Source of the DNA: Actinomycetes bacterium
GTDB taxonomy: Bacteria; Actinomycetota; CALGFH01
NCBI GenBank assembly: GCA_036000965.1
Contig: DASYUT010000305.1
Coordinates: forward strand, 1 to 32,584
DNA length: 32,584 bases
Direction of reading: 5' to 3'
This document shows positions 1-1,358 of the stretch, in pieces. The translations under genes were made by a program, and so were the position numbers. The notes under the pieces are model-generated. The model did no database searches. It worked only from the letters and a program-made list of their open reading frames with translations, and was not told where the DNA came from. Positions within the stretch are counted from its first letter, which is position 1; each line of letters begins with the position of its first letter.

Positions 1-1
1 G

Positions 2-187
2 CGGGTCCGCCGGGCGGCCGCCGCCTTGCAGGGGCAGCGCACCGCCTTGGAGGGGCAGCGCACCGCCTTGGAGGGGCAGGGCACCGGCCTGGAGGGGCAG
101 GCTGCTGTGGCGCCGGGCCATGCCGCCGCCCTGCGGGGGCAGGCAGACGCTGCCCTGCGGGAGCAGGCCGGGGAGGGCCCGCGGTGA
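2..187 (+). CDS. C-terminal end of an upstream protein with 7-residue repeats (partial)
   Basis: The reading frame is open from the window edge to a TGA at 185-187. That stop overlaps the GTG start of the next gene in a GTGA, an arrangement typical of translationally coupled genes. The visible 61 residues are low complexity: about four consecutive 7-residue repeats of the form [A/T]-[A/G]-L-E-G-Q-R, then looser copies, ending in AGEGPR. No domain is visible. Genes directly before MauD-like thioredoxins are often MauE/DoxX-type membrane proteins, so the missing N-terminal part could be one, but this is inference from position only. The repeats may form a helical or coiled tail. The frame choice rests on the 4-bp overlap and the regular in-frame repeat. 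Confidence 0.6.
   Translation, partial: RVRRAAAALQGQRTALEGQRTALEGQGTGLEGQAAVAPGHAAALRGQADAALREQAGEGPR
20..103 (+). repeat. 21-bp tandem repeat, four copies
   Basis: Four consecutive 21-bp units begin at 20, 41, 62 and 83. The middle copies are nearly identical, and weaker copies lie near 125 and 149. The unit is a multiple of three and reads through in frame as seven residues of the upstream protein's tail. Confidence 0.85.
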
Positions 188-780
188 CCGGACCGTGGAT
201 CGCGGCCTTCGTGGTGCTGTGGCTGCTGGTACTCGCGCTCGCCTTCCTCCACCTCGGCGTGCTGCGCCGGATCCTCCCGGTGCTCGAGGCGGCCGAGCGG
301 CACGGCCACGGCGCGCGGTTCGGCCTGGGCGGCCTGCCCGCGGGGACGCCGCTGCCCGACTTCGAGGTCGAGACCGAGGCCGGCGACCCCGTCCACACCA
401 GGGACCTGCGCAACCGCCAGGCGGTCTGGCTGCTGGCCAGCCCGGGCTGCGAGCCCTGCGAGGCGCTGGCCGCGGAGCTCCGGGAGGCGGGCGAGCCCGC
501 CCTCGGCGTCCCGCTGCTGGCCATCTCCGACGTGTCCGAGACGGAGCGGACGCTCGGGCTCCCTCCCGGGGTGACCACGCTGTACCAACGCCAGGGGGCG
601 GCGGCCGACGCCCTCCGGACCGACGCCACCCCGCACGCGCTGGCCGTCGACGCCAGGGGCGTCGTCGTCGCCACCACCACGCCGAACACCCTCGACGACC
701 TGCGGGCGCTCGCCAGGCGGCTCACGGAGGAAGGCGACGCGCCGCCGCAAGCGCCCAGCGGGACCGCCGCCCGCGCGTGA
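184..780 (+). CDS. Membrane-anchored thioredoxin-like protein, MauD-like
   Basis: Probable disulfide oxidoreductase acting outside the membrane (198 aa). Residues 4-26 form one hydrophobic anchor with few charges before it. A thioredoxin-fold domain follows from about residue 55, with a C89-E-P-C92 redox motif after the first strand and a cis-proline loop near P150 (T-P-H-A). This layout matches MauD/TlpA-type proteins, which keep cysteines of exported partners in the right redox state. The GTG start at 184 is supported by the 4-bp overlap with the preceding stop, so the two are probably coupled. A 12-cysteine exported protein lies about 220 bp downstream and is an obvious candidate substrate, although this is inferred from neighbourhood only. 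The C-terminal 15 residues are Ala/Pro-rich and look disordered. Confidence 0.75.
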   Translation: MTGPWIAAFVVLWLLVLALAFLHLGVLRRILPVLEAAERHGHGARFGLGGLPAGTPLPDFEVETEAGDPVHTRDLRNRQAVWLLASPGCEPCEALAAELREAGEPALGVPLLAISDVSETERTLGLPPGVTTLYQRQGAAADALRTDATPHALAVDARGVVVATTTPNTLDDLRALARRLTEEGDAPPQAPSGTAARA

Positions 781-787
781 ACCGCCC

Positions 788-930
788 CAGCGCACGGAAG
801 ACAGACGACCTCTACCAGCGCCCGAAGCCAGGTGACATACCCCAGCGCAGCGCCCGAAGCCAGGTGACATGCCCCAGCGCCCCGAGGGCCTCTGACATCC
901 ACCAGCGCCCCGAAGGCAGGTGACGTCCAG
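788..930 (+). repeat. Array of five degenerate ~28-bp direct repeats
   Basis: Copies begin at about 788, 816, 848, 875 and 903. The core reads CAGCGCCC(C)GAAG followed by CAGGTGACAT in the best copies, with spacing of 27-32 bp. Copies 2 and 3 are nearly identical. The array fills the gap between the thioredoxin-like gene and the Cys-rich gene. Spacing and length vary and there are no unique spacers, so it is not a CRISPR. It could be a multi-site operator, an RNA element or a decayed tandem duplication. Confidence 0.7.
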
Positions 931-1004
931 ACGACAGGCCCGACGTGACACTGTCCGGTCCGCACCCCCGACCCATCCGCTCACGACGCTCCGGAGGCGA
1001 TCAC

Positions 1005-1358
1005 GTGACCACCGACCAGCACGAGGCAGGAACCGCGACGACCGTCCGCTCCAAGCCGCACCCTGTGGCCGGAACCAGCAGGAGGAGCAGCCGCCGAGCG
1101 TTCGTGCGGCAGCTCGGGACCACGCTGGGCGTGGGCCTCGGCGTCGCGCTGCTTCCCGGCCAGGCCGCGGCCAACCGCAAGCAGAGCACGCTGGACTGCG
1201 ACATCCTCTGCAGCCCGTACAAGTGCACCAACACGGGCTGCTGCCGCAACGCCCACATCTTCTACTGCCGCTGCAGCCCCTTCGCCAGGTACATCTGCCT
1301 CCCTGGCTTCACCTGCACGTCCTTCTGCACCCACAGCTGCCCGACCGGGCAGTGCTGA
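1005..1358 (+). CDS. Tat-exported small protein with 12 cysteines
   Basis: The start chosen is GTG at 1005, because GGAGG at 993-997 sits 7 bases upstream; the longer in-frame start at 945 has no such site. The product is 117 aa. Residues 29-35 carry S-R-R-A-F-V-R, a good twin-arginine motif, followed by a hydrophobic stretch and a Q-A-A-A cleavage region near residue 56. The predicted mature part is about 61 residues with exactly 12 cysteines, including a C-C pair, and contains no tryptophan. Tat export and the even cysteine count suggest a compact, disulfide-knotted or metal-binding secreted protein. The Mau-like neighbour recalls the methylamine dehydrogenase light chain, which also has 12 cysteines and a Tat signal. 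That enzyme needs two tryptophans for its TTQ cofactor, so this protein cannot be a functional version. Function unknown. Confidence 0.75.
   Translation: MTTDQHEAGTATTVRSKPHPVAGTSRRSSRRAFVRQLGTTLGVGLGVALLPGQAAANRKQSTLDCDILCSPYKCTNTGCCRNAHIFYCRCSPFARYICLPGFTCTSFCTHSCPTGQC

What the first reader, a model, noticed from the sequence alone, without database searches (positions are those of the whole stretch)
1..1358. Redox/export locus: MauD-like thioredoxin beside a Tat-exported 12-cysteine mini-protein
The sequence shows a membrane-anchored C-x-x-C thioredoxin, coupled to an upstream gene, followed by a small protein with a twin-arginine signal and a ~61-residue mature part holding 12 cysteines. 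MauD is known to support maturation of the disulfide-rich methylamine dehydrogenase light chain. Here the exported protein has no tryptophan, so it cannot form the TTQ cofactor. I infer a dedicated disulfide-folding pair for an unknown secreted knot, metal-binding or antimicrobial-like protein.
Basis: partly seen in the sequence, partly recalled or inferred. Interest (0 to 1): 0.7.

Follow-up and report, generated by a model that had tools for sequence, protein, structure and literature searches.

The report
MauD-like thioredoxin with cysteine-rich Tat mini-protein
A gene for an exported 61-residue protein packed with 12 cysteines sits beside a gene for a membrane-bound thiol-disulfide enzyme; relatives of the enzyme in the same phylum repeatedly carry different, unrelated cysteine-rich exported proteins, so it is probably a dedicated folding helper with an interchangeable client.

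Summary
In detail: a MauD-like, membrane-anchored CEPC thioredoxin-family ORF (184-780, start GTGA-overlapped with a truncated upstream ORF) is followed by a Tat-signal precursor (GTG 1005, SD 993-997) whose 61-residue mature part has 12 Cys and no Trp. It is not a methylamine dehydrogenase (MADH) light chain. The mature part has no detectable homologue and is an orphan. The pairing is not accidental. In a phylum sample, loci with MauE plus a MauD-like gene recurrently carry a Tat-signal Cys-rich ORF (20/39, against 1/41 MauE loci without MauD). The partners fall into several dissimilar families, and the MauD tree clusters by partner type, even inside genomes that hold two systems. The window's MauD is sister to one from another family whose partner is also a short Cys-rich Tat protein. 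Best explanation: a client-specific disulfide-formation or isomerisation module. The client's role is unknown; an FtsX/LolD-type ABC pair adjoins some short-type loci but not this one. MauE/MauD with precursors of 8 or more Cys was already noted in Streptomyces by decRiPPter (PMC7794033), so this is a new variant of a known candidate kind. The upstream MauE gene is inferred: the contig starts at base 1.

The parts
2..187 (+). C-terminal tail (61 aa, low complexity) of an upstream gene cut by the contig start; MauE by inference only
   Evidence: Open frame ending in TGA that overlaps the GTG start of the next ORF; 21-bp tandem repeat 21-100; no MauE over cut-off elsewhere in the assembly; relatives have MauE directly before MauD
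184..780 (+). MauD-like membrane-anchored thioredoxin-family protein, 198 aa
   Evidence: TIGR02661 36.8 bits, PF00578 23.5 bits; profile of 11 relatives hits ResA/TlpA-type structures, best 3ia1 E 9.8e-11; confident N-terminal helix in an otherwise poor AF2 model
448..459 (+). CEPC redox motif (residues 89-92); Thr-Pro of the thioredoxin cis-Pro loop follows at T149-P150
   Evidence: Sequence; both Cys and P150 invariant in 11 relatives
787..929 (+). Imperfect 28-bp tandem repeats in the spacer between the two genes
   Evidence: TRF, 5.0 copies, 73% matches; function unknown
993..997 (+). Shine-Dalgarno-like GGAGG, 7 nt before GTG 1005
   Evidence: Sequence
1005..1358 (+). Precursor of the Cys-rich mini-protein, 117 aa
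   Evidence: ORF with GC3 0.94; sub-threshold TIGR01409 Tat signal match (13.5 bits, cut-off 16.7)
1005..1172 (+). Tat signal region: SSRRAFVRQLGTTLGVGLGVALLPGQAAA
   Evidence: Twin Arg (R30, R31) and F33 invariant in six aligned precursors
1173..1355 (+). Mature part, 61 aa, 12 Cys, no Trp
   Evidence: no homologue in Pfam, NCBIfam, PDB, plasmids or genome contigs

Best explanation
The two genes are one folding-and-export unit. The Cys-rich precursor is routed through the Tat pathway, its signal is cut after AAA, and the mature part, with six Cys pairs outside the membrane, is oxidised or shuffled into the correct disulfides by the membrane-anchored CEPC protein. That protein is kept in the right redox state by a MauE/DoxX-type membrane partner, whose gene is expected just upstream of base 1. 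Shown: the two genes, their features, the recurrence of the pairing and the clustering of MauD by client type. Inferred: Tat export, disulfide formation, the MauE gene here, and the secreted end product being a small disulfide-rich effector (antimicrobial or signalling more likely than enzymatic).
For: Features and 12 Cys far above composition. Among 80 loci chosen only by MauE, a Tat-signal Cys-rich ORF was detected in 20 of 39 with a MauD-like gene and 1 of 41 without, Fisher 3e-7; reversed sequences gave 4 of 80, unrelated loci 1 of 20. Four further MauD loci of this set (L095, L149, L159, L171) have Cys-rich ORFs that the strict motif missed. All strong short-type hits (E<1e-7) lie near MauE and/or MauD. 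The MauD tree clusters by partner type (9 changes, shuffled mean 25.4); G230 carries two systems whose MauDs sit in different partner clades; window MauD is sister to L042 MauD (96/95), itself beside a short 12-Cys Tat protein. MauD profile matches ResA/TlpA oxidoreductases. MauE/MauD are required for methylamine metabolism in Paracoccus (reference 66 quoted in PMC7794033).
Against: No biochemical evidence. The upstream gene cannot be read and no MauE reaches the cut-off in this assembly. The window's mature part is not significantly matched by the profile of other short-type clients once the signal is removed (2-7% of shuffles score as high), so client homology is not shown. A 224-bp repeat-containing spacer separates the two genes, so they may not be one transcript. 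Loci counted are related by descent, so the p-value overstates independence.
Confidence: 0.68

Rival explanations
1. Member of a secreted antimicrobial or RiPP-like peptide system: the Cys-rich protein is a bacteriocin-like effector, folded by MauE/MauD and handled by an FtsX/LolD-type ABC exporter or immunity pump.
For: decRiPPter lists three Streptomyces candidate RiPP families with mauE, one with mauD, each with a precursor of at least 8 Cys. A ~920-aa FtsX-type permease plus LolD-like ATPase follows the short Cys-rich gene in L049, L139 and L205; the permease occurs in 6 of the 8 genomes with a short-type client and in 5 of about 388 others. A dedicated DsbA-like enzyme is needed for a disulfide bacteriocin in TMcin clusters (PMC13252029).
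Against: In the window no ABC pair of this kind is adjacent; the own-genome copy lies on another contig (C353) without a Cys-rich neighbour. The permease also occurs without a Cys-rich gene. Host relatedness inflates the co-occurrence. No activity data.
Confidence: 0.35
2. A degenerate or shortened MADH light chain (TTQ protein) that kept its MauD/MauE maturation genes.
For: Tat signal, 12 Cys and a MauD-like neighbour are also features of the MADH light chain system (family knowledge).
Against: No Trp in the whole precursor; mature part 61 aa (family knowledge: about 131 aa in MADH); no PF02975 or TIGR02659 match and no PF02975 match in the whole assembly. The one TIGR02659 match among relatives (L057, 27 bits) vanished with the mature part alone.
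Confidence: 0.03
3. Metal-binding (metallothionein-like or copper-peptide-like) secreted protein; the thioredoxin keeps its thiols reduced for metal loading.
For: 12 Cys including CC and CxC motifs; L042 MauE weakly resembles HvfX, a Cu-binding RiPP maturation protein (23.6 bits, cut-off 80).
Against: Exported Cys-rich proteins beside thioredoxin-family enzymes are usually disulfide-bonded (general knowledge); Cys spacing is not conserved among clients, as a shared metal cluster would require.
Confidence: 0.12
4. Chance neighbourhood: a housekeeping ResA/TlpA-type protein next to an unrelated orphan ORF.
For: 224-bp spacer; no homologue of the mature part; the two other genomes of the same class lack both genes.
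Against: Recurrent pairing with Cys-rich Tat ORFs and partner-type clustering of MauD.
Confidence: 0.06

Closest known systems
mau cluster MauE/MauD with MADH light chain MauA (Paracoccus)
   Same: MauD-type membrane thioredoxin with CxxC next to a Tat-signal, 12-Cys secreted client; MauE adjacent in relatives
   Different: Client here is half the size, has no Trp so no TTQ, no heavy chain or other mau genes seen, no sequence match; MauD match far below equivalog cut-off
decRiPPter candidate RiPP families with mauE (and mauD) in Streptomyces (PMC7794033)
   Same: MauE/MauD beside a short precursor with at least 8 Cys, outside methylamine metabolism
   Different: That report describes three Streptomyces families and does not report a Tat signal in the passages read; the present data cover many families of a phylum, several unrelated client families, and partner-type clustering of MauD
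ResA/TlpA thiol-disulfide oxidoreductases
   Same: Fold family, membrane anchor, CEPC motif
   Different: Genomic partner is a Cys-rich client rather than cytochrome c biogenesis genes
TMcin and actifensin bacteriocin clusters (PMC13252029, PMC6989792)
   Same: Small disulfide-stabilised secreted peptide with ABC transporter genes; TMcin has a dedicated oxidoreductase
   Different: No Tat signal or MauE/MauD reported there; no ABC pair adjacent in the window; no sequence similarity shown

Membership tests
MauD (TIGR02661 equivalog) | Score over curated cut-off 188.6 bits | tested here: not met
   36.8 bits, E 2.6e-9: MauD-like, not MauD equivalog
MauD-like / ResA-TlpA thioredoxin family | N-terminal membrane helix, CxxC, cis-Pro loop, thioredoxin-fold profile match | tested here: met
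   CEPC and T149-P150 conserved in relatives; profile hits ResA-type structures to E 9.8e-11; helix at N terminus
MADH light chain (PF02975, TIGR02659) | Profile match | tested here: not met
   No match; no PF02975 match in assembly
MADH light chain (PF02975, TIGR02659) | Two Trp that form TTQ | tested here: not met
   0 Trp in 117 aa
Tat substrate | S-R-R-x-F-x-[KR] motif, hydrophobic core, AxA site | tested here: met
   SRRAFVR...GVGLGVALLPGQAAA by sequence; TIGR01409 13.5 bits, below cut-off 16.7; export itself not testable
MauE-MauD-client module | MauE/DoxX gene directly upstream of MauD | not testable with these tools
   Contig begins at base 1; tail of an overlapping upstream ORF present; no MauE over cut-off in assembly
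MauE-MauD-client module | Tat-signal Cys-rich ORF directly downstream of MauD | tested here: met
   ORF 1005-1358
Short Cys-rich client family (alignment A1) | Mature part matched by profile of the other members above shuffled controls | tested here: not met
   Only the signal region scores; 2-7% of shuffles score as high as the mature part
RiPP precursor | Leader processing and enzymatic modification of a core peptide | not tested
   No modification enzyme other than the MauD-like protein next to it; no product known

The most novel reading that the evidence does not exclude
MauE/MauD is a general, swappable disulfide-folding cassette for fast-evolving Tat-exported Cys-rich effectors across this phylum. 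Each MauD lineage co-evolves with one client family, and the window holds a new orphan 12-Cys mini-protein fold (effector or antimicrobial) that no existing family describes.
Probability: 0.4. Interest if true: 0.75.

Novelty: new variant of a known kind. Interest (0 to 1): 0.5.

Why it matters
If right, MauD and MauE, known from one enzyme (methylamine dehydrogenase), are in fact client-specific disulfide catalysts used for many unrelated secreted Cys-rich proteins. That gives a genomic handle (search next to MauD) for finding small disulfide-rich proteins too divergent for homology search, and a testable system for how six disulfides are set in a 61-residue protein exported by Tat.

Tried and rejected
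Homologues of the Cys-rich protein: two genome-contig scans, plasmid tblastn and a PDB search gave nothing; weak phylum hits L005-L007 lay in frames overlapping longer ORFs of other genes and were discarded. MADH relationship of the 'CGQSGV' clients (L057) was dropped when the mature part alone gave no TIGR02659 match. Homology of the window's client to the other short clients was tested and not upheld. AF2 of the mature part (pLDDT 48.5) and MauD (53.9) without an alignment was too poor for disulfide pairing or fold search. A lactococcin-972-type reading of the ABC pair was not kept: the ATPase scores higher with LolD (222 bits) than with L_ocin_972_ABC (186 bits). Looking for the missing MauE on another contig failed.

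Full report
WHAT IS THERE. The window is the first 32,584 bases of contig C305 of a 6.47-Mb draft genome. Bases 184-780 encode a 198-aa protein with an N-terminal membrane helix and one CxxC (C89-E-P-C92). It matches TIGR02661 MauD at 36.8 bits, far below that equivalog's cut-off of 188.6, and AhpC-TSA at 23.5 bits. A profile of it and ten relatives matches ResA/TlpA-type solved structures (best 3ia1, E 9.8e-11). Its GTG start overlaps the stop of an upstream frame (2-187) in GTGA. That upstream tail is low-complexity (21-bp tandem repeat) and the rest of its gene is off the contig.

After a 224-bp spacer with imperfect 28-bp repeats comes GTG 1005, preceded by GGAGG at 993-997. The 117-aa precursor carries SSRRAFVRQLG, a hydrophobic core and an AAA site; the mature part is 61 aa, NRKQSTLDCDILCSPYKCTNTGCCRNAHIFYCRCSPFARYICLPGFTCTSFCTHSCPTGQC, with 12 Cys and no Trp. 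GC at codon positions is 0.52/0.62/0.94, all Cys codons are TGC, and with the Cys frequency of ten other window proteins (0.53%) P(>=12 of 61) is 7e-16. The rest of the window is mostly housekeeping genes by reading (branched-chain amino acid ABC genes, uvrB, murA, uvrA).

THE CLIENT IS AN ORPHAN. No Pfam, NCBIfam or PDB match, nothing in plasmids or in two genome-contig scans, nothing in the two other genomes of its class. Weak phylum hits were spurious frames.

THE PAIRING RECURS. Searching the MauD-like protein in 396 genomes of the phylum gave matches in 19, the window's own included. Reading their neighbourhoods showed small Tat-signal Cys-rich ORFs directly downstream in most of them, of several unrelated kinds. 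To avoid choosing by MauD, MauE (PF07291) was used as the anchor: 103 of 396 genomes had it, and 80 loci were fetched. A Tat-signal Cys-rich ORF was detected in 20 of 39 loci with a MauD-like gene and in 1 of 41 without (Fisher 3e-7; reversed sequences 4 of 80; unrelated loci 1 of 20). Four of the 19 MauD-positive negatives do have Cys-rich ORFs that the motif missed (L095, L149, L159, L171). About eight others have only a weak MauD-like gene on the opposite strand. The single exception, L101, is a contig that ends just after MauE. In the other direction the detector missed L139, which has a short client beside a MauE remnant and no MauD. These loci are related by descent, so the p-value is a guide only.

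CLIENT TYPES. (a) Short, mature about 42-61 aa: the window, L042, L049 (two), L139, L052 and near-copies, and a remnant in L205. (b) 'HICGHTYTTGSCPHP...GGGWSRCC' clients, about 127 aa, the commonest. (c) 'RVCGQSGVAPKC...' with long C-terminal extensions (L057, L142, L143). (d) 'TCPPG..GGWWK...FRYGQCN' (L159, L161, L166, L168, L171). (e) Singletons, including a phospholipase-A2-like one by eye (L117). The clients scanned match no Pfam family convincingly.

MAUD TRACKS THE CLIENT. A maximum-likelihood tree of 52 MauD-like proteins clusters by client type: 9 changes against 25.4 in shuffles, none of 200 as low. G230 carries type (a) at L042 and type (b) at L043, and its two MauDs fall in their partner's clades, not together; G037 likewise holds several. 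The window's MauD is sister to L042's (96/95), whose client is also short. One row (L171_A4_3) is labelled by its locus but is a second, short-type-like MauD; corrected, the short group would be a single weakly supported group (81/76).

HOMOLOGY OF THE SHORT CLIENTS. A profile of six short precursors (A1) finds strong matches (E<1e-7) only near MauE and/or MauD. But when the window protein is left out of the profile, only its signal region scores; 2-7% of shuffles score as high as its mature part. The window client is therefore a short client by architecture and MauD phylogeny, not by demonstrated sequence homology.

ABC LINK. In L049, L139 and L205 the short client is followed by a ~920-aa FtsX-type permease and a LolD-like ATPase. 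The permease occurs in 11 of 396 genomes, six of them among the eight with short clients. The window's genome has one copy, on contig C353, without a Cys-rich neighbour. This hints at an exporter or immunity function in some lineages but is not part of the window locus.

MECHANISM. Most likely the client is exported by Tat and oxidised or isomerised outside the membrane by the CEPC protein, supported by a MauE/DoxX-type partner. This follows the proposed, though not fully proven, role of MauE/MauD for the six-disulfide MADH light chain. Tat export, disulfides, MauE here and client function are inferences.

KNOWN OR NEW. The decRiPPter study (PMC7794033) found three Streptomyces gene-cluster families with mauE (one with mauD), each with a precursor of at least 8 Cys, and suggested that they modify precursors. 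The present locus is a variant of that candidate kind, with three additions: the Tat signal, the multiplicity of unrelated client families, and the client-specific clustering of MauD. It is not MADH: no Trp, no PF02975/TIGR02659 match, no PF02975 match in the assembly.

Noticed in passing
G000:C353:10658-13369 (L227:5656-8427): Own-genome copy of the ~920-aa FtsX-type permease with LolD-like ATPase and a divergent PadR-like regulator by eye, no Cys-rich or MauE neighbour.
   Followed up: partly
L139, L205, L230: MauE is truncated or frameshifted and MauD missing before the short Cys-rich gene or the permease, as if these clusters decay quickly.
   Followed up: partly
L046:4540-5130 and similar loci (cluster 1): A ~196-aa membrane protein weakly like DsbD_2 (21.8 bits, cut-off 24.9) follows the 'CGHTYTT' clients in most loci; possible further redox partner.
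   Followed up: no
L117:3888-4649: MauE-MauD locus whose Tat-signal Cys-rich client looks like a secreted phospholipase A2 by eye.
   Followed up: no
window 21-100 and 787-929: 21-bp tandem repeat in the upstream ORF tail and imperfect 28-bp repeats in the MauD-client spacer; meaning unknown.
   Followed up: no
L049:1807-2058: A second short Cys-rich Tat precursor 3' of the FtsX/LolD-type ABC genes, next to dipeptide-type permeases.
   Followed up: partly
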